Assembly: GCA_944322305.1 (NCBI GenBank)
Contig: CALUOP010000011.1
Span: 1 to 57,393, forward strand
Direction: 5' to 3'
Length of the DNA stretch: 57,393 bases
Source of the DNA: an uncultured Coriobacteriaceae bacterium
Lineage (GTDB): Bacteria > Actinomycetota > Coriobacteriia > Coriobacteriales > Coriobacteriaceae
The stretch's first letter is position 1, and the number at the start of each line of letters is the position of its first letter. This document shows, piece by piece, positions 3,599-20,717 of this stretch. Position numbers and translations under genes: made by a program. A model generated the notes under the pieces. The model saw only the letters and a list, made by a program, of their open reading frames with translations, was not told the DNA's origin and made no database searches.

Positions 3599-5227
3599 CT
3601 ACCGCTCCCACTCCGCAAGCAGCATGCGCGCGTGCTCCAGGCTCGCCTCGGACTGCTCGCCCGAAAGCATGCGCGCCACCTCGGCCACGCGCTCATCGCC
3701 CGTCACCTCGGAAAGCACGGTCACCGGGCGCTCGTCTTTGCTGCGCGTCACCACATAGTGGGTCGCGGCGGCCACCGCCACCTGCGCCAGGTGCGTCACC
3801 ACGATGACCTGGTGGGTGCGCGCCAAGTCGGCCAGCACCGCAGCGAGCGAGCGCGCCGTGGCCCCGCCCACGCCGGCATCCACCTCGTCGAACACCAAGG
3901 TGTCGGCCGCGTCGGCCTCGCCCAGCACCACCTTCACGGCAAGCATCACGCGCGAAAGCTCGCCGCCCGAGGCGATCTTTTTCAGCGGCCGCGGCGTCAG
4001 GCCCGAGCCCGAGCGGTACAAAAGCTCGCAGGCGCTGGGGCCCTCGACGGTCCACTTCTCGCGCGGCAGGGGCTTGGCGCTCCACACCAGCTCGGCGCTG
4101 CCCATCTCGAGCCGCACCATCTGGCGCGACACGGCCCGGCAAAACGCCGGCGCCGCGTTGTTGCGCGCGCGGTCGAGCGCCTTGGCCGCCTTCGCAAGCT
4201 CCGCCTCGGCGGCGTCAACGGCGGCGCGGGCGCGCTTCTCGCGCTCGGAGGCGTCGTCCACCACGGAAAGCAGCTCGCTTGCGGCGTCGCGCGCGGCGAA
4301 CACGTCCTCCATGCGCGGGCCGAAGCTGCGCATGAGCCCCCGCAGCGCCGAGAGCCGCTCCTGCATCTGCGCAAGCTCCGCCGGGTCGAAGTCCACCGCC
4401 TCCTGGTAGCTGCGCAGGTCGGCCGCGGCGTCCTCCATGACGATGGCGGCCTCGGCAAGGTTGTCGGCGAACTCTCCCAGCTTGGCGTCGACCGTGCGCA
4501 TGCGTGCCAGCTCCGCGATGGCGCTGTTCACGCCGTCGAGCGCCCCGCCCTCGGCTGAAAGCGCCTCGTGGGCGCTGTAGGCGCATGAGACGAGCGCCTC
4601 GGCGTGTTCGGCGCGCGGAAGCGTCTCCTCGAGCTCCTCCACCTCGCCGGGCTGCGGGTCAACCTCGCCGATGCGCTCCAGCGCAAAGCGAGCCTCCTCG
4701 ACCTTGGCTCCCTTGGTGCGCGCCGCCTCCAGCACGCGCTCAAGCTCGCGGGCCGCAGCACGCGCCGCAGCAAGCTTTCCGCGGTACTCATCGAGCGCCG
4801 GCCCGACCTTCTCGGCCGCCCAGGAGTCGATCATCGCCACATGGTTGGCAGCGGCAAGCAGGCGCTGGTGCTCGTGCTGACCGCACAAGTCGATGGTGGC
4901 GCCCACGCGCTCGGCCAGCTCGCGCACGCTCGCCACGTGTCCGTTGATGCTCACGCGGCTGCGCCCGTCGGCACCCACGCGCCGGCGCACGGCGATGCCC
5001 TCGGCGTCATCCGGCCCCTCGTACACGCGGCCCTCAACGCAGAGATGGTCCTCCCCTTCGCGCACCTGGCCGGCCTCGGCGCGCTCGCCCATCAGAAGCT
5101 TCAGCGCCGAGAGCAAAGCCGTCTTGCCCGCGCCGGTCTCGCCGGTCAGCACGGTGAGGCCGCGCCCCGGCGTGAGCGTTGCCTGGGCGATAAGCGCCAC
5201 GTTCTCTACCTGGATCTCATCAATCAT
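3599..5227 (-). CDS. recN: DNA repair protein RecN
   Basis: A 542-residue SMC-like ATPase that acts early in double-strand-break repair. The Walker A box GETGAGKT is at residues 29-36. A long coiled-coil centre rich in Ala, Glu and Arg follows. The C-terminal half carries the ABC signature SGGELSRVMLAVKVVL and Walker B DTLVFDEVDAGVGG, with the D-loop/H-loop region VIVVTHLAQVA. The length is near the family norm of 550-570. The ATG at 5227 overlaps the end of nadK by eight bases, so translation is probably coupled. It is the last gene of a tlyA-nadK-recN unit, matching the tlyA-(argR)-recN order of Firmicutes; argR is absent here. Confidence 0.96.
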   Translation of the reverse strand: MIDEIQVENVALIAQATLTPGRGLTVLTGETGAGKTALLSALKLLMGERAEAGQVREGEDHLCVEGRVYEGPDDAEGIAVRRRVGADGRSRVSINGHVASVRELAERVGATIDLCGQHEHQRLLAAANHVAMIDSWAAEKVGPALDEYRGKLAAARAAARELERVLEAARTKGAKVEEARFALERIGEVDPQPGEVEELEETLPRAEHAEALVSCAYSAHEALSAEGGALDGVNSAIAELARMRTVDAKLGEFADNLAEAAIVMEDAAADLRSYQEAVDFDPAELAQMQERLSALRGLMRSFGPRMEDVFAARDAASELLSVVDDASEREKRARAAVDAAEAELAKAAKALDRARNNAAPAFCRAVSRQMVRLEMGSAELVWSAKPLPREKWTVEGPSACELLYRSGSGLTPRPLKKIASGGELSRVMLAVKVVLGEADAADTLVFDEVDAGVGGATARSLAAVLADLARTHQVIVVTHLAQVAVAAATHYVVTRSKDERPVTVLSEVTGDERVAEVARMLSGEQSEASLEHARMLLAEWER

Positions 5228-6233
5228 CGCGCCGCACTCCGTAGAACACGCGGGACACCGAGGAGTAGAAGCTCTCGGGGCCGTAATCCAACAGCAACAC
5301 GTCGCCCGGGCCGCGCCGCACCACCACGCGCGCTATGTCGCCCGGGCACTCGAGCACCTGGCCGTCCACCTGCACCGAGGCGTGGGTCGGGCGGTCGTAG
5401 TCGAGCGCCAGCTCAACCACGTCGGAGGGCGAGGTGAGAAACGCACGCGCCTGGATGGTGTGCGGGGCTATGGGCACGCACACCATGCCGGTGTAGTCGG
5501 GGCTCACGATGGGGCCGCCGGCCGAAAGCGCGTAGCCGGTGGAGCCCGTGGCGGTTGAGACCACGATGCCGTCGCCGCGCAGCTTGTCGATGCGGTGGCC
5601 GGACACGGTGATCTCCACCTCGATCATCTCGCCCAGCGCGCCGCGCGTAAGGGCGAGGTCGTTCAGGGCAAAGACGGTAAGCGGCTGCGGGGGCTCGCCG
5701 GCCCCAGACGCGGCGGCGCCGGCAACCGCGACGCTCGGGCGCTTCTCGGCCGCCGGGACGGCGGGAACGCGCATCACGTCCGCCGCGGGGCCGCACGCCC
5801 CCACGGGGACGATGTCGGCCGAGAGCGTGGCGCGGCGGCTCACGTGCATCTCGCCGGCAAGCGCGTCGGCCACCACTTCCAAGATGTTCACGTCGGCCGG
5901 ATTGGCCGCGGTGAGAAAGCCCAGGTGACCGTAGGAGAGCCCGAGGATGGGAATGCCGCGCGTGCCCACGATGCGGGCCGCGCGCAGAAGCGTGCCGTCG
6001 CCGCCGAGCGAGATCACCAGCTCGGCCGTCTCAAGCGTCGCCGCGTCAAGGGTCGGGGCGGCGGCAAGACCCGGCCCCACGCCGGCCGGAGCCGCGGCGT
6101 CGGCGCTGTCCCCGGCGCGCATGTCAGGCGCCCACGCCACGTCGTAGCCCTGGCGCTTGAGCCAGGTCTCGAGCATGAGCGCGTCCTGCACCGCCTCGAT
6201 GCGGGAGCAGTTCACCACCAGCAGCACGTTCAT
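5220..6233 (-). CDS. nadK: NAD kinase
   Basis: A 337-residue cytosolic enzyme that phosphorylates NAD to NADP. The diagnostic GGDGT motif is at residues 77-81 (ISLGGDGTLLRAAR), followed by GHLGFLTA and the second conserved block FALNDLALTRG. An Ala/Pro-rich insert (PAVPAAEKRPSVAVAGAAAS) before the second block makes it longer than the usual 280-300 residues. The ATG at 6233 overlaps the tlyA stop as ATGA, and the family N-terminus MNVLLVVN fits this start. It sits between tlyA and recN as in many Gram-positive genomes. Confidence 0.95.
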   Translation of the reverse strand: MNVLLVVNCSRIEAVQDALMLETWLKRQGYDVAWAPDMRAGDSADAAAPAGVGPGLAAAPTLDAATLETAELVISLGGDGTLLRAARIVGTRGIPILGLSYGHLGFLTAANPADVNILEVVADALAGEMHVSRRATLSADIVPVGACGPAADVMRVPAVPAAEKRPSVAVAGAAASGAGEPPQPLTVFALNDLALTRGALGEMIEVEITVSGHRIDKLRGDGIVVSTATGSTGYALSAGGPIVSPDYTGMVCVPIAPHTIQARAFLTSPSDVVELALDYDRPTHASVQVDGQVLECPGDIARVVVRRGPGDVLLLDYGPESFYSSVSRVFYGVRRDD

Positions 6234-7042
6234 CGCGTATCCCCGTCCGTTATGCGCACGGCCTCGGCGCGGCAGCTCGCCGCCGCGCGCTCCGTCTCGT
6301 CGGGCGCGCACGCGCAGCGCTCGCCCAGCAGGAAAAACTCCCTGTTGCCCTTTGTACCCGTAATGGGAGAGGCACACACCCCGCGCGGCACGAGCCCGGA
6401 CGCGGCAAACAGCCCGATGACGTCGAGAAGCACCTGGCGGTGCACGGCCGGGTCGCGCACGATGCCGCCGGCGCCCACCTGGTCGGCCGGCGCCTCGAAC
6501 TGCGGCTTCACCAGCGTGAGGAAGCGGCCCGCGCCGTCCAGCGCCTCGAGCGTGGCCGGCAGGATGGTGTGAATGCTCGTGAACGACACGTCGCACACGG
6601 CCAGGCTGAACCGCGCGCGGTACCCCAGCGCCGGTAGGTCGCAGATGTTGGTGCGCTCGAGCAGGGTCACGCGGTTGTCGTTGCGCAGGCTCCAGTCGAA
6701 CTGCGCACGCCCCACGTCAACCGAGACCACGTGCGCAGCCCCGCGCTTGAGCAGGCAGTCGGTGAAGCCGCCCGAGGAGCACCCGATGTCCAAACACGAA
6801 AGCCTCGCCGGATCGACGCCGAAGGCGTCGAGCGCACCGGCGAGCTTGACCCCGCCGCGGCTCACGTACGGCGCCCGCCCCTTCACGTGCAGGGGCAGCC
6901 CGGGCTTCACCTGCGTGCCGGGGGACGAGAAGCGCTCGCCGCCCGAGGACACGAGCCCTGCCATCACGCAGCGCACCGCGTCGTCTTGCGTGGGGCACAG
7001 CCCCTGCGCCACCAGCTCGGCATCCAAACGCACGCGCCTCAT
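6230..7042 (-). CDS. tlyA: TlyA-family rRNA (cytidine-2'-O)-methyltransferase
   Basis: A 270-residue protein with an S4 RNA-binding domain at the N-terminus (about 1-60, MRRVRLDAELVAQGL) and an FtsJ-type SAM methyltransferase domain. The SAM loop is LDIGCSSGGFTDCLL (84-98), with KLAGALDAF before it and VKPQFEA later. TlyA proteins 2'-O-methylate ribosomal RNA and were once called hemolysins. The start at 7042 has a strong AGGGGAGGGG ribosome site. It is the first gene of the tlyA-nadK-recN run; the 200-bp gap upstream holds the xseB terminator. Confidence 0.93.
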   Translation of the reverse strand: MRRVRLDAELVAQGLCPTQDDAVRCVMAGLVSSGGERFSSPGTQVKPGLPLHVKGRAPYVSRGGVKLAGALDAFGVDPARLSCLDIGCSSGGFTDCLLKRGAAHVVSVDVGRAQFDWSLRNDNRVTLLERTNICDLPALGYRARFSLAVCDVSFTSIHTILPATLEALDGAGRFLTLVKPQFEAPADQVGAGGIVRDPAVHRQVLLDVIGLFAASGLVPRGVCASPITGTKGNREFFLLGERCACAPDETERAAASCRAEAVRITDGDTR

Positions 7043-9904: not shown

Positions 9905-11818
<1,914 letters not shown>

Positions 11819-12096
11819 AGACCTGCCTCCTCTCGTGTAGTTGTTTTTCCAAGCCGCGCGGGCGACCTGAACCAGACTGCCTTCCAATATACTCCATGCG
11901 GACGGCGAGCCTGCCCGCGGGCTTGCGGTAGGCCGCATCGTTTCCGCGAACGGTCGCGGCCGGCGGCGGCAAAACCTGCGCTTGACAAAACGTTTGACCA
12001 GGGGGCGGGCGGCGGGCGGGGGACGGGTCGCCCCGGCGGGCGGGCCGCGCGGGCGAGCGGTAGGTGGCGACCCCTGCGCAGCAAGAGCACCCCTCC
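11819..12096. other. Upstream region of the carboxyltransferase-accC operon
   Basis: Noncoding. A possible -10 (TATATT on the minus strand near 11888) lies about 70 bp before the carboxyltransferase start, without a clear -35. Otherwise I see only GC-rich sequence up to the repeat array. Confidence 0.3.
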
Positions 12097-12472
12097 GGTT
12101 AACCGCCCTTATCGCATGGAAGAGCTCGGATAGGCGCACCCGCCGCACAAGAATGCCCGATTGACCGCTGTTATGTCAAAGAGAGGCGCGGAAGCAAACG
12201 CTGCGTCGGCGCGGACGCTTAGGTTAACCGCCCTTATCGCATGGAAGGATCCGGTTTCCCGCTTATTCGCACAGAGAGGTTCAGTTAGTCGTTGTTATCG
12301 CATGTGGAAAACGGTTAGTCGCAAAAAAGACCGCCAACTCGCGGATAAACGCGAATTGGCGGTCGTAGGAGCGACTAACATGATGCAAGCAGTCGCAAAA
12401 GCGATCAACGCAGCTCTTTGTCGTTCGAAATCGCGGTCAACCAGTCGCTAAAGGTCGGAACCGCGGCCAACC
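12097..12472. repeat. Head-to-head array of degenerate 30-32 bp repeats around a hairpin (array 1)
   Basis: The gap between efp and the carboxyltransferase operon carries a periodic signal. On the left, reverse-oriented units start with GGTTAACCGC or a variant at 12097, 12128, 12159, 12190 (weak), 12222, 12253, 12283 and 12313, spaced 30-32 bp. In the middle is a hairpin at 12329-12364. On the right, forward units end in GCGACTAAC, GCGATCAAC, GCGGTCAACC and GCGGCCAACC, with AAC at 12379, 12409, 12441 and 12471. Left units are reverse complements of right units. The same family fills 44682-45119 and probably 27573-27846. No coding frame follows the period. Confidence 0.75.
12323..12364 (-). 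terminator. Intrinsic terminator downstream of efp, at the centre of repeat array 1
   Basis: GACCGCCAA at 12329-12337 pairs with TTGGCGGTC at 12356-12364, with extra pairing of CGCG inside. On the minus strand the stem is followed by TTTTTT. It is a textbook terminator for efp, and it also forms the axis about which the 30-bp repeats reverse orientation. A second, imperfect stem (12485-12522) abuts the efp stop. Confidence 0.7.
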
Positions 12473-14002: not shown

Positions 14003-14704
14003 CTACAGCCCGCGAGCGCGCGCTTCGGCTAGGTAGGGGTTGGCGGCCAGCTCGCGCTCCATCACGGTCGAGGGACCGTGGCCCACCAGGCAGAGCGTGT
14101 CGGCCGGCAGCAACCGCGCGAGCTTGCCCAGCGAGGCCAGCAGCGCGTCGGCGTCGCCGCCGGCGAGGTCGGTGCGGCCGGCGGAACCCGGGAAGAGCGT
14201 GTCGCCCACAAAGGCCACGTGCCCCGCCGCGCACGCGCAAAACAGCACGACGCCGCCGGGCGTGTGGCCGGGCGTCTCGACAACCTGCAGCGTCACCTCG
14301 CCAAACGTCACGGTGTCGCCCTCGTGCAGCATCCGGTCGGGCGCCGGCGCGTCGGCGTCGTACCCGAAGCTGTGCGAGCTGTTGGCCCGCGCGCTCTGGG
14401 CGCGCTCCGCGTCCGTCTCGGAGATGAGGTATGGCGGCCGTACACCGCATGCCTTCTCGCACGCGTCGAGCACGCCCTCCACGCCGCCAACATGGTCGCC
14501 GTGGCCGTGAGTAGAGATCACCGCCGCAAGCCGCACGCCGGGGTGCTTCTCGGCCAGGTAAGCGTAAACCTCGGCACCCTCGCCGCCGGGATCCACCACC
14601 ACGGCCTCCCCCGCCGACACGGCCAGGTAGGTGTTGGTCTGAAGCGGACAGGTGTTCACCACGTCAATGGCAAGCTGGCCGCCAGGCGTCAGGTCAAGCT
14701 GCAT
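14003..14704 (-). CDS. Metallo-beta-lactamase-fold hydrolase (glyoxalase II-like)
   Basis: A 233-residue cytosolic metallohydrolase. The metal motif HxHxDH is THGHGDH (65-71), with DPGGEG before it, a later metal His in TPGHTPGG, the bridging Asp in FVGDTLFPGSAGRTDL, and a final His in LVGHGPST. The sequence resembles hydroxyacylglutathione-hydrolase-like proteins; the true substrate is unknown because Gram-positive anaerobes often lack glutathione. It follows rel as in many clostridial recJ-relA-hydrolase clusters, but a 218-bp gap suggests its own promoter. The ATG at 14704 has AAAGGA upstream. Confidence 0.88.
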   Translation of the reverse strand: MQLDLTPGGQLAIDVVNTCPLQTNTYLAVSAGEAVVVDPGGEGAEVYAYLAEKHPGVRLAAVISTHGHGDHVGGVEGVLDACEKACGVRPPYLISETDAERAQSARANSSHSFGYDADAPAPDRMLHEGDTVTFGEVTLQVVETPGHTPGGVVLFCACAAGHVAFVGDTLFPGSAGRTDLAGGDADALLASLGKLARLLPADTLCLVGHGPSTVMERELAANPYLAEARARGL

Positions 14705-14922: not shown

Positions 14923-17286
14923 TTACCGCCGGCGCTTGGACGTGGCGCCCTCGCCGGGCATGAGGCGCCGCGCGTCGTAGACGCTCGGCACGCGCGTCAC
15001 CGCCGCGAGCAGCGGGTCGAGCGCCGAGGCGTCGGAGATCTCCACCAGAAAGCGCAGCTCGGCGATGCCGTCGCGGTCCACGCTCGTGGACGACGACAGG
15101 ATGTTGCCCGCCGCGTCGGCGATGGTTTTGCTCACGTCCACCAGCATGCCGATGCGGTCGAGCCCCTCCACCACGATCTCCACCTGGAACAGGGCATCCG
15201 AGCTGGTGTCCCACTCCACCGCGATCATGCGCTCGGGGTTCTCCATGAGGCCCTTCACGTTGGGGCAGTCGGCCCGGTGCACGCTCACACCGCGGCCGCG
15301 CGTCACGAAGCCCACGATGTCGTCGCCCGCCACGGGATTGCAGCAGTGCGCCAGACGCACCAGCACGTCGTCCGTGGCGCCTTTCACCACCACGCCGGAG
15401 CTCGAGCGGCGGCGCGGCTTGCGGTTGGAGCCGCGCGGGTGCTCGTGCACCCCGAAGCTCGCCAGCGGCGCCCCGCCGGCACCGGCGATCTGCGCGGGCG
15501 CCGGGTCGAGGATGGCCTGCGTCTTGTTGGCCACCTGCTTGGCCGTGACCTTGCCCGAGCCGATGGCGGCGAAAAGGTCCTCCAGCTGCTTGAACTTGAG
15601 CTTCTCGGCCACCTGGGCAAGGGCGCGGGTGGAGCGCTGGGTGGAGATGCCGTAGCCGCGCTTGCGCAGCTCGCGGGCGAGCTGGTCGCGGCCTGCCGCG
15701 GCGTCGTCGTTTTTGGTGACCGCCGTGAAGTAGCGGCGGATCTTGGAGCGCGCCGAGGGGGTCTTGACGATGTCGAGCCAGTCACGCGAGGGCTTGGCGT
15801 TCTTGTTGGTGAGGATCTCCACGCGGTCGCCCATGGCAAGCTCGTGGGTGAGCGGCGCCACCACGCCGTTGACCTTGGCGCCCACGCAGTGGTTGCCCAC
15901 CTCGGTGTGCACCGCGTAGGCGAAGTCGAGCGGGGTCGACCCGGCGCGCAGGCTCATGACCTCGCCCTTGGGCGTGAACACGAAGATCTCGCTGTCGTAG
16001 AGGTCAACCTTCAGCGAGTGCAGGAACTCCTTGGGGTCGTCGAAGTCGTCGGCGGCCGCCCAGTCCAGCGAGCGCTTGAGCATGTTGATCTGCTCGTCCA
16101 AGCGCTGGGCGTCGGTGGACTTGCGCGCGCTCGAGCCGCCCGACTTCTTGTAGAGCCAGTGCGCCGCGATGCCGTACTCGGCCTGCTCGTGCATCTCGTG
16201 CGTGCGGATCTGGATCTCGAGCGGGCGCGCCGCCGGGCCGATCACCGTGGTGTGGAGACTCTGGTAGTTGTTGAGCTTGGGCGTGGCGATGTAGTCCTTG
16301 AAGCGCCCGGGCATGGGGTGCCACAGGCTGTGCACCGCGCCGAGCACGCTGTAGCAGTCGCGCACGCTCTGGGTGATCACGCGCAGGGCGATGAGGTCGA
16401 AGATCTCGGAGAACTCCTTGCCCTTGCGCTTCATCTTCTGGTAGATGCTCCAGTAGTGCTTGGGCCTGCCGCTGATGGAGAAGCCCGTGAGCCCCACGCT
16501 CTCCAGCTCGTCGGAGAGCGTCTTGATAGTCTCCTCGAGGTAGCGCTCGCGCGCCTCGCGGCTCTCGGCCACCATGCGCGAGATGCGCTGGTAGTTCTCG
16601 GGCTCGAGGTAGAAAAACGAGAGGTCCTCGAGCTCCCACTTGATGGAGGAGATGCCCAGGCGGTCGGCCAGAGGCGCGTAGACGTCCATGGTCTCGCGCG
16701 CCTTGAACAGGCGCCGGTCGGGCGGCAGGGCCGCGAGCGTGCGCATGTTGTGCAGGCGGTCGGCCAGCTTGATGATAACCACGCGGATGTCCTTGGACAT
16801 GGCCAGAAACATCTTGCGCAGGTTCAGCGCCTGCTTCTCGTCCATCGAGGCGACCTGGATGTTGGTGAGCTTGGTCACACCGTCCACCAGCTCGGCCACC
16901 GTGTCGCCGAACTCGCGGGCCACATCGCCCAGCGAGGTGTCGGTGTCCTCCACCGTGTCGTGCAGCAGCGCGGCGCACACCACGTCGGAGTCCATGGAGA
17001 GGTCGGCCAGGATGGTGGCCACCTCCACGGGGTGGTTGATGTAGAGCTCGCCGGAGCGGCGACGCTGGCAGCTGTGCTTCTCGGCCGCGAAGCAGTAGGC
17101 GCGCTCCACGCGCGCGCAGTCCTCGGGCGACATGTAGCGCAGGCAGACCTCATAGAGGATGGGGTAGGTCTCCGCCGCGATCTCGGCCGGGACGTCCTCC
17201 GCGCGGGTGTAGTGGTGCATCGCGGAGAACGGGAACAGCTGGCCCTTAACGTTGCGCGACGCCTTCTCCTGGTTTTTCTCCGCCAT
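14923..17286 (-). CDS. rel: Bifunctional (p)ppGpp synthetase/hydrolase Rel
   Basis: A 787-residue stringent-response enzyme that makes and degrades (p)ppGpp. Order of domains: HD hydrolase (ALLHDTVEDT, HD at 109-110), synthetase (IFDLIALRVI, YIATPKLNNYQSLHTTV, LEIQIRTHEMHEQAEYGIAAHW), TGS (VFTPKGEVMSLRAGSTPLDFAYAVHTEVG), helical/zinc region (LAHCCNPVAGDDIVGFVTRGRG), and a C-terminal ACT domain. The hydrolase His/Asp pairs are intact, so it should be bifunctional. The ATG at 17286 is 15 bp after the recJ-recQ stop; a TTG three codons upstream is too close to the AGGGAGG site. Confidence 0.97.
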   Translation of the reverse strand: MAEKNQEKASRNVKGQLFPFSAMHHYTRAEDVPAEIAAETYPILYEVCLRYMSPEDCARVERAYCFAAEKHSCQRRRSGELYINHPVEVATILADLSMDSDVVCAALLHDTVEDTDTSLGDVAREFGDTVAELVDGVTKLTNIQVASMDEKQALNLRKMFLAMSKDIRVVIIKLADRLHNMRTLAALPPDRRLFKARETMDVYAPLADRLGISSIKWELEDLSFFYLEPENYQRISRMVAESREARERYLEETIKTLSDELESVGLTGFSISGRPKHYWSIYQKMKRKGKEFSEIFDLIALRVITQSVRDCYSVLGAVHSLWHPMPGRFKDYIATPKLNNYQSLHTTVIGPAARPLEIQIRTHEMHEQAEYGIAAHWLYKKSGGSSARKSTDAQRLDEQINMLKRSLDWAAADDFDDPKEFLHSLKVDLYDSEIFVFTPKGEVMSLRAGSTPLDFAYAVHTEVGNHCVGAKVNGVVAPLTHELAMGDRVEILTNKNAKPSRDWLDIVKTPSARSKIRRYFTAVTKNDDAAAGRDQLARELRKRGYGISTQRSTRALAQVAEKLKFKQLEDLFAAIGSGKVTAKQVANKTQAILDPAPAQIAGAGGAPLASFGVHEHPRGSNRKPRRRSSSGVVVKGATDDVLVRLAHCCNPVAGDDIVGFVTRGRGVSVHRADCPNVKGLMENPERMIAVEWDTSSDALFQVEIVVEGLDRIGMLVDVSKTIADAAGNILSSSTSVDRDGIAELRFLVEISDASALDPLLAAVTRVPSVYDARRLMPGEGATSKRRR

Positions 17287-17301
17287 AGCGCTCAAGCCTC
17301 C

Positions 17302-20300
17302 CTACTTGGACCCGTCCTGCGCGTCCGGCGTGATGGGCCGGTTGATGCGCGCGAGCATGTCGGCCGCCGAAGCGCTGAGCGCCCACGTTTTGAACGCGTC
17401 GAACGCGCGGCGGGCGCGCATCCCTTCAAGATAGCGTATCGACGCCTCAAGTTCTACCCGCCCGGGGTGCTCCGCCATCGCGATGCGGCGCATTTCTCCT
17501 GCTCCCGTAACATGCGCGAAACCTAGCTCGGTGAAAATCGCCAGCCCCGAGGACACCGCCTGCTCGGCCACGGGGGTGCGCATGTCTATGGCCAGGCACA
17601 TGCTCGCGATGTCGCGGTCGGTGGCCGAGAAGCTCTCCTCCCCCGTCTCGCAGCGGTGCCGGCGCCACATGGTCTGCAGCGCCCGGTACAGCGTCACCAG
17701 CTCGGCGCGCTCGGGCGCCGCCCCGGTGAGCAGGCGCTCGTTGATGCGGGCGTCGCGCGAGGAGTACAGGAGGTGGATCTGCGCGGGCGCCCCGTCGCGG
17801 CCGGCCCGCCCGCTCATCTGGTTGAACTCCACCGCGCCGAAGGGCATGTGGTAGAGCACCACATGGCGGATGTCGGGCAGGTTCACGCCCTCGCCGAAGG
17901 CCGAGGTCGAGACGATGCAGGTGAGCTCGCCCGAGCGGAAGGCCCCCTCGACATCGCCGCGGACCTCGCGCGTGAGGCCGGCGTTGTAAAAGGCGATGCG
18001 GCTGCCCAGCTCGGGCACGCGCTTGCGCAGCATCCGCGTGAGCGAGACGGACTGCTCGCGGGAGTTCACGTACACCACGCACTTCTGCCCCGTGGCGACA
18101 AGGGACACCAGGCGGTTCTCGCGGCAGGCGAGGTCGCGCTCGTCCACCACCTCTAGGTTCTCGCGGCAGGAGGCGTCGGTGACGACCGTGTCGACGGCGA
18201 GCAGCCGGCAGATCTCCGAGGCGGCGTCAGGGGCCGCGGTGGCGGTGACGGCCAGCACGCGCGGGTGCCCGAGCTCCTCGAGCACGCGGGGCATCTCGGC
18301 GTAGGCGGTGCGGTGCCCGCCCTTGGCCTGGGCGGCGTGGTGCGCCTCGTCTACCACCACGAAGCCCACGCGCCCGGCGGCGGCGAAGCGGTCAGCGTGG
18401 ATAGCGAGAAACTCCGGCGTGGTGAGTACGATGTCAACCGAGCCGGAGGCGAGCGCGGCGAAGACCTCGTCGCGGCGGTCTTGGTCGGACTCGCCGGTGA
18501 GCACGCGGGCGACAAGCCCGATCTTGGCGAGGTCGGCCTCCAGGTGGAGGGCCTGGTCGGCCACGAGCGCGCGCAGCGGGTAGACGAAGACGCTCGCGCG
18601 CCCGCGCGTCAGCGCCTCGCACGTGGCGTGGATGTGGAAGATGAGCGACTTGCCGCGCCCCGTGGCCATGACGCAGAGCACGTTCTGCCCGGCGGCGAGC
18701 GCCTTAAGGGCGGAGGCCTGCGCAGGGTGCAGCGAGCCGTCGCCGATGAAGAGGCGCGTCAGGCGCTCGGTCAGGGCGGGCTCGGGCAGCGCGGCGAGCT
18801 CGGCGCGGGCGCGGGCGGCCTCAGCCGAGAGGGCCGGCGGCGCAACTGGGCAGGTGAGGCAGGCCTCCTCCTGCGCGCCCAGCTCCTCCATGAGCTCGGG
18901 GTCGGGCGCCGCGGCGAGCGCCTGGGGGCGGCCGTCGCGCGTAAGGCCGTCGCGCAGCAGGATGTCCTTCACCATGAGCTTGGTCTTCACGCGGCCCTGC
19001 CAGTGCTCGGCCACCGCCTCGAAGACCAGGTCGACCGCGCCGTCGTAGGAGGCCACGCGGGAGATGTCAGGCACGCGGAACATGATGGCCGGCACGCTCG
19101 TGCGCCCGTCGGTGGCTAAAAAGCGCAGGTGGTCGCCGGTTTTACCCACCGGCACGCGGTCGGTCATGGTAACGCCGGTGGCCGCCAGAAGCGGCACCTT
19201 GTTGCCCTGGCCGTAGGGCTCGAGCACCGCCATGCTCTCCACGGTGGGCGTGTCCAGCTCGCCGAGCGCCACCACGCCCGCCACCTCGCCGGTGTCCTCG
19301 AAGTCCTCCGCGGGCACGGCGGCGAGCGCCTCCTCGAGCCGCGCGCGCAGCTCGTCGAGCTTGTCGGCCGCGCAGGTGACGCCCACCGCGCCGGCGTGCC
19401 CGCCGAAGCGCATGAGCACGTCGGAGCACTGCTCGACCGCCTCGAACAGGTTGACCCGCCCCACCGAGCGGCCCGAGCCGTGGGCCACGCCGTCGACGAT
19501 CGAGAACAGCAGCGCCGGCACGTGGTAGCGGTTCACCAGGCGCGAGGCGACGATGCCCTTCACGCCCTCGTGCCAGCCCTGGCCGCCCACGAGCACCACG
19601 CGCCCGCCGGCGTAGGTCTGCTCGGCGAGCGCCATGGCCTCGTCGGTGAGCTCGGCCTCGATGCGGCGGCGTTCCTGGTTGATCTCCTCGAGCTGGGCGG
19701 CGAGCTTGCCGGCCTTGGCCGGGTCGCGCGCCAGCAGGAGGTCGAGCGCGAGCGCCGGGTCGGTCATGCGGCCGGCGGCGTTCAGGCGCGGGATAAGCGA
19801 GAACGACAGGCTGTCGGCCGAGACCTGCGAAAGATCGGTGCCGGTGACGGCGGCGAGCGCCACGAAGCCGGGGCGCTGGCTTGCGCGCATCATGCGGATG
19901 CCGTCGGCCACGAGCGCGCGGTTCTCGGGTGTGAGGGTCATCATGTCGGACACGGTGCCGAGCGCCGCCACCTCGGTGAAGCGGCGCCACAGGTTAGGCT
20001 CGCCGCGGCGGCGCCCGAGCTCGTGCACGAGCTTGAGGGCCACGCCCGCGCCGGCGAGCTCGCGGCTGGGGCTCGCGGCGTCGAGCTTGGGGTCGGCCAC
20101 CGGGATGCCCTGGGGCACCAGGTCGGCCGGCTCGTGGTGGTCGGTCACCACCACGTCGATGCCCTGGGAGAGCAGGTAGGCGGTGTCGTTCTTGGCGGCG
20201 ATGCCGTTGTCGACCGTAATGACGAGCGAGGGCCGGCAGGCGGCTATCACACGGTCGAGCGCCTCTTTTGACAGGCCGTAGCCCTCGTCGAAGCGGCGCG

Positions 20301-20655
20301 GGATGAAGGGGCGCACCCGGCCGCCGAGCTCGAGCAGGGCCTCGGTGAGCAGGCAGGTCGAGGTGATGCCGTCCACGTCGAAGTCGCCGAAGACGGCGAT
20401 CTGCTCGCCTGCGTCAAGCGCGCGCCCGACACGGTCGGCCACCTCGCCGAGGCCGGGGATGATGAGCGGGTCCTCCCAGTCGCGCTCGAGCGAAGGCGTG
20501 AGGAAGCGGCGCGCCTCCTCGACCGAGGAGATGCCGTGCGCCACCATGACGCGCGCCACCAGCGGCGCCACGCCGAGGGCGCAGGATAGCTCGTTTTCTA
20601 GGGATGGGTTTGCGGGAACCACCTGCCACCGGTGGCTGGTTGCGAGAGACGACAT
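17302..20655 (-). CDS. recJ: RecJ exonuclease fused to a RecQ-like superfamily 2 helicase
   Basis: A 1117-residue fusion. Residues 1 to about 580 are RecJ, a 5'-3' single-strand exonuclease: DFDVDG (91-96), DNG and TDHHEP (171-176), and the DHHA1 motif GGHAGAVG (418-425). After an Ala-rich linker with EEACLTCP (596-603), a helicase core begins: Walker A TGRGKS (665-670), DEAHH (769-773), TATAAP, and motif VI QMSGRAGRDG (946-955). Motif VI matches RecQ, while SAFGEGVNLPDIR is less RecQ-like. No typical RQC zinc site or HRDC domain is evident in the last 160 residues. RecJ and RecQ cooperate in RecF-pathway resection, so one polypeptide could unwind and digest. The ATG at 20655 has AGGA eight bases upstream. 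It is cotranscribed with rel. Confidence 0.93.
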   Translation of the reverse strand: MSSLATSHRWQVVPANPSLENELSCALGVAPLVARVMVAHGISSVEEARRFLTPSLERDWEDPLIIPGLGEVADRVGRALDAGEQIAVFGDFDVDGITSTCLLTEALLELGGRVRPFIPRRFDEGYGLSKEALDRVIAACRPSLVITVDNGIAAKNDTAYLLSQGIDVVVTDHHEPADLVPQGIPVADPKLDAASPSRELAGAGVALKLVHELGRRRGEPNLWRRFTEVAALGTVSDMMTLTPENRALVADGIRMMRASQRPGFVALAAVTGTDLSQVSADSLSFSLIPRLNAAGRMTDPALALDLLLARDPAKAGKLAAQLEEINQERRRIEAELTDEAMALAEQTYAGGRVVLVGGQGWHEGVKGIVASRLVNRYHVPALLFSIVDGVAHGSGRSVGRVNLFEAVEQCSDVLMRFGGHAGAVGVTCAADKLDELRARLEEALAAVPAEDFEDTGEVAGVVALGELDTPTVESMAVLEPYGQGNKVPLLAATGVTMTDRVPVGKTGDHLRFLATDGRTSVPAIMFRVPDISRVASYDGAVDLVFEAVAEHWQGRVKTKLMVKDILLRDGLTRDGRPQALAAAPDPELMEELGAQEEACLTCPVAPPALSAEAARARAELAALPEPALTERLTRLFIGDGSLHPAQASALKALAAGQNVLCVMATGRGKSLIFHIHATCEALTRGRASVFVYPLRALVADQALHLEADLAKIGLVARVLTGESDQDRRDEVFAALASGSVDIVLTTPEFLAIHADRFAAAGRVGFVVVDEAHHAAQAKGGHRTAYAEMPRVLEELGHPRVLAVTATAAPDAASEICRLLAVDTVVTDASCRENLEVVDERDLACRENRLVSLVATGQKCVVYVNSREQSVSLTRMLRKRVPELGSRIAFYNAGLTREVRGDVEGAFRSGELTCIVSTSAFGEGVNLPDIRHVVLYHMPFGAVEFNQMSGRAGRDGAPAQIHLLYSSRDARINERLLTGAAPERAELVTLYRALQTMWRRHRCETGEESFSATDRDIASMCLAIDMRTPVAEQAVSSGLAIFTELGFAHVTGAGEMRRIAMAEHPGRVELEASIRYLEGMRARRAFDAFKTWALSASAADMLARINRPITPDAQDGSK

Positions 20656-20711: not shown

Positions 20712-20717
20712 ATTATA
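20712..20717 (-). promoter_or_regulatory. Candidate -10 of the recJ-rel operon
   Basis: A perfect TATAAT on the minus strand about 57 bp before the recJ start, in an AT-rich island (ATTATATAA) of otherwise very GC-rich DNA. No good -35 is visible at 17 bp. Confidence 0.45.

What the first reader, a model, noticed from the sequence alone, without database searches (positions are those of the whole stretch)
17302..20655. RecJ nuclease and RecQ-like helicase in one polypeptide
All RecJ motifs (DFDVDG, DHH, GGHAGAVG) and SF2 helicase motifs (TGRGKS, DEAHH, QMSGRAGRDG) are in one intact frame. RecQ and RecJ are known to cooperate in RecF-pathway resection, so the fusion would be a self-contained unwinding nuclease. 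The helicase lacks clear RQC/HRDC parts and has a divergent motif V, so it may be a distinct helicase branch. It is cotranscribed with rel.
Basis: partly seen in the sequence, partly recalled or inferred. Interest (0 to 1): 0.7.

Follow-up and report, generated by a model that had tools for sequence, protein, structure and literature searches.

The report
RecJ nuclease fused to RecQ-like helicase
One protein carries both a DNA-chewing nuclease (RecJ) and a DNA-unwinding motor related to RecQ; the fusion is an ancient, conserved enzyme of a whole bacterial class, and the unexplained tail on the RecJ of common bacteria such as Bacillus appears to be the decayed remains of the same motor.

Summary
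Window 20655-17302 (minus strand) is one intact 1117-aa frame: a full RecJ (DHH, DHHA1, OB) joined by a disordered ~40-aa linker to an SF2 helicase with a RecQ-type core. It is not an artefact: 166 distinct fusions recovered here keep every catalytic residue of both halves tested, it is near-universal in the class (Coriobacteriia), and it also occurs in sister actinobacterial classes and in 13 of 149 sampled Bacillota, always at the same recJ-(apt)-rel-MBL locus. The helicase is a separate clade from RecQ: it has no RQC, zinc or HRDC domain and has lost the aromatic-loop Trp in all 166; the genome also has a normal RecQ. (1) 120 of 166 fusions have a HIRAN domain between nuclease and helicase; the window's lineage has lost it. 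(2) The C-terminal domain of ordinary Bacillota RecJ (Pfam PF10141) is a degenerate remnant of this helicase: profile matches reach E 3e-42 through decay intermediates, and Bacilli-type tails align to it at 96% probability (shuffled controls about 1% or less). Most likely function: coupled unwinding and 5'-to-3' digestion that widens gaps before RecA loading. Function is inferred; no assay exists.

The parts
17302..20655 (-). recJ-helicase fusion gene, 1117 aa
   Evidence: ORF; Pfam and NCBIfam; orthologues
19954..20403 (-). DHH domain (residues 85-234), catalytic D91/D93/D95, D149, D172-H173-H174, near D237
   Evidence: PF01368 E 6.8e-20; residues conserved in 165-166 of 166
19321..19593 (-). 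DHHA1 domain (355-445), H420 in GGH motif
   Evidence: PF02272 E 3.5e-13
18964..19275 (-). RecJ OB domain (461-564)
   Evidence: PF17768 E 8.5e-18; full-length model aligns to RecJ-DNA complex 5f55, Z 51.9 over 528 residues
18826..18948 (-). disordered linker (about residues 570-610), the place where HIRAN sits in 120 of 166 orthologues
   Evidence: pLDDT about 35; HIRAN in orthologues
18226..18726 (-). helicase RecA1 domain (644-810) with Walker A TGRGKS (18646-18663) and DEAHH (18337-18351)
   Evidence: PF00270 E 9.6e-24; model pLDDT 90
17791..18111 (-). helicase RecA2 domain (849-955) with motif V TSAFGEGVN and motif VI QMSGRAGRDG
   Evidence: PF00271 E 1.5e-22
17326..17718 (-). C-terminal tail (about 980-1110): long helix, winged-helix-like H-H-H-E-E, two helices; shared with Bacillota RecJ C-termini
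   Evidence: model; PF10141 matches in orthologues; hhalign
14923..17295 (-). rel (RelA/SpoT), start TTG 17295 or ATG 17286, GGAGG in front
   Evidence: TIGR00691 785 bits; sequence; synteny
14003..14680 (-). MBL-fold hydrolase (approximate start), third gene of the conserved block
   Evidence: conserved next to rel in most orthologous loci and in Monoglobus
20712..20717 (-). TATAAT, possible -10 box of the recJ-rel operon
   Evidence: sequence only; not reported by the promoter scan, which also asks for a -35 box

Best explanation
It is a bifunctional DNA-processing enzyme: a complete RecJ 5'-to-3' single-strand exonuclease tethered by a flexible linker to a RecQ-like SF2 motor. The proposed mechanism: the motor translocates 3' to 5' along the intact template strand at the 5' side of a gap or at a tailed end, peeling off the strand that carries the 5' end, and the RecJ half digests that strand 5' to 3' as it is displaced. 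Both halves thus advance in the same direction on opposite strands, widening the gap and leaving 3'-ended single-stranded DNA for RecFOR/RecA. Shown: the two halves, intact catalytic residues, RecQ-type fold, conservation, locus. Inferred from RecQ and RecJ biochemistry: polarities, unwinding, coupling and the gap-repair role. In most orthologues a HIRAN domain (a fork and 3'-end binder in HLTF) between the halves probably positions the enzyme at 3' ends or forks; the window's lineage does without it.
For: Domain searches; 166 distinct fusions with all catalytic residues of both halves conserved; fold of the helicase half matches RecQ, WRN, BLM with Z 24-28 and the nuclease half matches DNA-bound RecJ 5f55 with Z 51.9; the halves are separately well folded (pLDDT 89) with a disordered linker and no fixed mutual orientation (pTM 0.58), as expected of a tether. 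In E. [quoted passage not shown] recJ and recQ are overlapping neighbour genes in Bacteroides. HIRAN of HLTF binds fork-like DNA and is described as a recogniser of ssDNA 3' ends (PMC4666394).
Against: No biochemical or genetic data for any member. The RecQ aromatic-rich loop, which couples DNA binding to ATP hydrolysis in RecQ (own knowledge), lacks its Trp in all 166 fusions, so unwinding may differ from RecQ. The genome also has canonical RecQ and AddAB-like proteins, so the need for a second such machine is unclear. Several lineages lost the ATPase or the whole helicase from RecJ without losing RecJ.
Confidence: 0.6

Rival explanations
1. Fork-remodelling enzyme: the motor acts mainly as a translocase that remodels or reverses stalled forks (HIRAN-guided, as in HLTF), and RecJ trims the nascent strand. 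Gap widening is secondary.
For: HIRAN between the halves in 120 of 166; HLTF HIRAN binds forks and is needed for fork reversal (PMC4666394); the RecQ aromatic-loop Trp is missing in all.
Against: The motor is RecQ-type, not SWI/SNF-type; the window's lineage lost HIRAN and kept the motor intact.
Confidence: 0.25
2. The helicase half is chiefly a DNA-binding and regulatory module that tethers or gates RecJ; ATP turnover is not needed for most of its work.
For: In many Bacillota the homologous region has lost Walker A, DEAH and motifs V/VI yet is retained as a domain (PF10141), so a non-enzymatic role exists there.
Against: Walker A Lys, DExH and both arginine fingers are invariant in 166 of 166 intact fusions, which shows selection for ATPase function in these.
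Confidence: 0.12
3. Independent acquisitions: the helicase was fused to RecJ several times or passed between phyla, and the Bacillota C-terminal domain is unrelated.
For: Intact fusions are scattered in Bacillota (13 of 149); deep RecJ branches are poorly resolved.
Against: The fused helicases form one clade, inside which the Actinomycetota split from Bacillota and Coriobacteriia are one group; same domain order, HIRAN and tail, same recJ-rel locus; graded homology down to Bacilli tails.
Confidence: 0.12
4. Anti-phage defence protein: the helicase half scores against DpdF and PsyrT helicase models.
For: PADLOC DpdF-type models 203 bits.
Against: Core gene with a match in all 219 high-quality genomes sampled of the class, at a fixed housekeeping locus beside rel; those models are general RecQ-like helicases.
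Confidence: 0.01

Closest known systems
RecJ (TIGR00644), e.g. Deinococcus radiodurans and Thermus RecJ
   Same: DHH, DHHA1 and OB domains, all catalytic residues, fold (5f55, Z 51.9 over 528 residues)
   Different: carries a whole SF2 helicase and a different C-terminal tail
RecQ family helicases (RecQ, BLM, WRN)
   Same: RecA1-RecA2 core fold (Z 24-28), motif 0 Gln, DExH, QxxGRxGR
   Different: below the recQ_fam cut-off (177 against 219.8 bits), no RQC/Zn/HRDC, aromatic-loop Trp lost in all, FGEG(V/I)(N/D) motif V, separate clade
WRN (RecQ helicase with a 3'-5' exonuclease) and Bacillota DinG (helicase with a 3'-5' exonuclease, PMC12345164)
   Same: nuclease plus SF2 helicase in one chain
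   Different: here the nuclease is RecJ (DHH, 5'-3') and would act on the other strand from the motor; no common origin of the fusion
Pfam PF10141, ssDNA-exonuc_C (C-terminal domain of Bacillus and Staphylococcus RecJ)
   Same: homologous to RecA2 plus tail of this helicase
   Different: degenerate: RecA1 and helicase motifs lost; not an ATPase by sequence
HLTF/Rad5 HIRAN (PF08797)
   Same: same HIRAN domain, with a PxNPxDxNA-like motif, is in 120 of 166 orthologues
   Different: absent from the window protein; partner motor is RecQ-like, not SWI/SNF
recJ-recQ gene pair of Bacteroidota
   Same: nuclease and RecQ genes overlapping as neighbours
   Different: two separate proteins, annotated as an ordinary RecQ

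Membership tests
RecJ exonuclease | TIGR00644 equivalog score over cut-off | tested here: met
   449.1 against 396.9 bits
RecJ exonuclease | DHH, DHHA1 and RecJ_OB domains with metal-binding Asp/His residues | tested here: met
RecJ exonuclease | 5'-3' ssDNA exonuclease activity | not testable with these tools
   needs purified protein
RecQ family helicase | RecQ-type two-RecA core fold | tested here: met
   Foldseek best hit RecQ 4tmu E 9.5e-24; Z 24-28 to WRN, BLM, RecQ
RecQ family helicase | TIGR00614 recQ_fam score over curated cut-off | tested here: not met
   177.1 against 219.8 bits
RecQ family helicase | aromatic-rich loop with Trp after DExH | tested here: not met
   no Trp in 166 of 166; Phe kept in a few Bacillota
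RecQ family helicase | RQC and zinc-binding domain (HRDC optional) | tested here: not met
   no Pfam match at E up to 1; the genome's own RecQ has all three. Whether the tail is a diverged RQC is unresolved
RecQ family helicase | branches within the RecQ clade | tested here: not met
   fusion helicases and 13 RecQs are separate groups (SH-aLRT 94 and 99; quick tree, few outgroups)
HIRAN-containing protein | PF08797 domain | tested here: not met
   absent in the window protein; present in 120 of 166 orthologues
PF10141 ssDNA-exonuc_C | score over Pfam cut-off (26.4 bits) | tested here: not met
   no hit in the window genome; sub-threshold hits in orthologues L104, L073, L202 (16.6-22.2 bits); homology shown instead by profile comparison
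DpdF / PsyrT defence helicases | defence-locus context | tested here: not met
   fixed recJ-rel locus

The most novel reading that the evidence does not exclude
The RecJ of the common ancestor of Bacillota and basal Actinomycetota (or an early member of one of them) was a three-part machine, nuclease-HIRAN-RecQ-like helicase. Coriobacteriia and scattered Bacillota still use it, and the textbook RecJ of Bacillus, Listeria and Staphylococcus is a truncated descendant whose C-terminal domain (PF10141) is the dead motor.
Probability: 0.75. Interest if true: 0.72.

Novelty: new variant of a known kind. Interest (0 to 1): 0.62.

Why it matters
RecJ and RecQ are the classic example of a nuclease and helicase thought to work together in gap repair, but in E. 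coli they are separate, loosely coupled proteins. A natural covalent fusion, conserved through a class of gut and environmental bacteria, gives a direct system for asking whether and how the two are coupled. The HIRAN form links bacterial gap processing to the domain that guides human HLTF to stalled forks. The decay series explains where the unannotated C-terminal domain of Bacilli RecJ came from and predicts that it binds DNA or partners without ATP.

Tried and rejected
Assembly artefact: rejected (166 distinct fusions). Fusion limited to the window's genus or order: rejected. Sole RecQ or sole end-resection enzyme of the cell: rejected (canonical RecQ; no AddA over cut-off, but paired PDDEXK_1 proteins of AddAB size in most of 39 genomes). 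Defence system: rejected (scores, core-gene pattern). A HIRAN remnant in the window linker: none detectable. Tail as an RQC relic: unresolved; structural alignments to RecQ end near the Zn region and do not reach the RecQ winged helix. Match of S. aureus RecJ 8y30 to the model beyond the nuclease core: 638 residues, model 1-1083 and chain 2-735, against about 528 for other RecJs, but overall rmsd 24.8, so supporting only. First count of conserved residues included a few antisense ORFs; redone cleanly. Literature: no open paper found on a RecJ-helicase fusion, RecJ-HIRAN or the origin of PF10141; subscription papers, e.g. the original HIRAN description, could not be checked. Phage copies: one IMG/VR contig, L267, possibly host flank, not pursued.

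Full report
Check of the observation. Window 20655..17302 on the minus strand is a single ATG-started frame of 1117 aa. It contains DHH (85-234), DHHA1 (355-445), RecJ_OB (461-564), DEAD (644-810) and Helicase_C (849-955), all far above Pfam cut-offs, and passes the NCBIfam recJ equivalog (449 against 397 bits). The stop codon is followed by a GGAGG and the start of rel within 6-15 nt; a TATAAT lies 57-62 nt upstream of the recJ start, although the promoter scan, which also asks for a -35 box, reported none.

It is not an artefact. The genome (2.35 Mb, 15 contigs) has one copy. Each of the 65 genomes searched in the family has a strong match, almost all full-length. In the class 242 of 246, and 219 of 219 high-quality, genomes match at E<=1e-30. 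Matches with both halves in one frame run through five families of the order and the other orders. I collected 166 distinct fused proteins; the RecJ metal-site residues (D91, D93, D95, D149, D172, H173, H174, D237, H420) and the helicase residues (Q646, K669, D769, E770, H772, T806, Q946, R950, R953) are kept in 165-166 of 166. So both halves are under selection for catalysis.

Distribution beyond the class. A phylum-wide sample finds the helicase in three further family groups outside the class, always in frames of 1147-1340 aa; one is Candidatus Oleimmundimicrobium. A genome scan with named records finds it in Bacillota: Orenia metallireducens, Thermincola MAGs and others. In all of these it is fused to RecJ and followed by rel, in Orenia after a gap of about 540 nt that would fit apt, as in the B. 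subtilis recJ-apt-relA order known to me. Of 149 evenly drawn Bacillota, 13 have it, all in frames of 1197-1255 aa. I found no free-standing version of this helicase. Monoglobus, with a helicase-free RecJ, has the same recJ-rel-MBL order, so the locus itself is old.

Hidden third domain. In orthologues from other orders of the class, other Actinomycetota, Bacillota, and some Coriobacteriales the frame is about 100-130 aa longer between OB and helicase. That stretch is HIRAN (PF08797, 31-59 bits against 24.7). 120 of 166 have it; the window and 45 others, all from the window's order, do not, and nothing of it is detectable in the window's linker. The helicase-less L091 beside its fused sister L094 shows that the whole helicase can also be dropped.

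What the helicase is. The predicted helicase half (pLDDT 90) has a RecQ-type core: best Foldseek hit RecQ 4tmu (E 9.5e-24), and WRN, BLM, RecQ4 and bacterial RecQ at Z 24-28. It is not a RecQ by membership: below the recQ_fam cut-off, no RQC, zinc or HRDC, no Trp in the aromatic-rich loop in any of 166, motif V FGEG(V/I)(N/D) against FGMG(I/V)(D/N), and a clade separate from 13 RecQs including the genome's own canonical RecQ. Inside the clade the order is Bacillota, then other Actinomycetota, then Coriobacteriia, as expected of inheritance by descent.

Relation to ordinary Bacillota RecJ. Many Bacillota RecJs have a 190-420 aa C-terminal extension, in part Pfam PF10141. Searched with the fusion-helicase profile, 20 such extensions give a graded series: 3.5e-42, 2.9e-26, 2e-18, 4.8e-16 and so on to marginal, against 0.3 or worse for reversed controls. 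The best (L255) aligns over RecA2 and tail but with motifs V and VI gone; L257 and L260 (996 and 983 aa) keep a RecA1-like stretch without Walker A or DEAH, judged by eye. Bacilli-type tails (Bacillus-like, Paenibacillus, Listeria) align collinearly with RecA2 plus tail (hhalign 96.1%, E 3e-9, 215 columns; 20 column-shuffled controls at most 1.1%; canonical RecQ 0.6%). PF10141 itself hits an intact fusion (L202, E 7e-6). The solved S. aureus RecJ aligns to the full model over about 110 more residues than other RecJs, reaching model residue 1083 (rmsd large, supporting only). On a RecJ-core tree intact fusions and relics are interleaved (deep branches weak). Loss from an ancestral fusion is the simplest reading, because proteins lacking Walker A and motifs V/VI cannot be the source of an intact SF2 helicase.

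How it most likely works. Shown: two intact catalytic modules, joined by a flexible tether (linker pLDDT about 35, pTM 0.58). From established work: RecJ digests 5'->3', RecQ moves 3'->5', and both act in one epistasis group to enlarge gaps at the 5' side (PMC9203016). Inferred: the motor runs on the template strand, displacing the 5'-ended strand that the tethered nuclease removes, so that both move the same way on opposite strands. HIRAN, a binder of fork-like DNA and of ssDNA 3' ends (PMC4666394), would position the ancestral form. Because canonical RecQ and AddAB-like proteins coexist, the role is more likely gap or fork processing than sole double-strand-end resection.

Limits. No activity has been measured. 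The trees are quick trees. HHalign E-values are for single comparisons. Prior mention of this architecture in subscription literature could not be excluded.

Noticed in passing
L091 (G071:C6) 4736-6448: A 571-aa RecJ with no helicase at the same recJ-rel locus, next to fused sisters in the same genus (L094, L111): a recent loss of the helicase half.
   Followed up: partly
L118 2911-5445 (Fusobacterium vincentii): 845-aa RecJ whose C-terminus keeps a RecA1-like stretch without Walker A (LLIGNFEYNSIQKKVLASIF...): a possible helicase relic outside Bacillota; profile match E 0.001. PF10141 also rang weakly in Thermotoga maritima.
   Followed up: partly
L117 1962-5577 (Bacteroides finegoldii): recJ and recQ overlap by 8 nt as neighbouring genes; a parallel genetic coupling of the two in Bacteroidota.
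   Followed up: no
L219 3762-8501 (Thermincola genome G621): A RecQ-like helicase in an open frame of about 1600 aa, with roughly 270 aa before and 900 aa after the helicase; domains not examined.
   Followed up: no
L212, L214 (Coriobacteriia genomes G144, G152): Short RecQ-like helicases of about 455 aa in the class; possible second RecQ subfamily.
   Followed up: no
L115 2938-5016, L116: Oscillospiraceae RecJs that seem to keep only the winged-helix tail of the lost helicase.
   Followed up: partly
window 9905-12148 (-): Protein with an oxaloacetate-decarboxylase-like alpha part and a C-terminal biotin-carrier-like part in one frame (read by eye, not searched).
   Followed up: no
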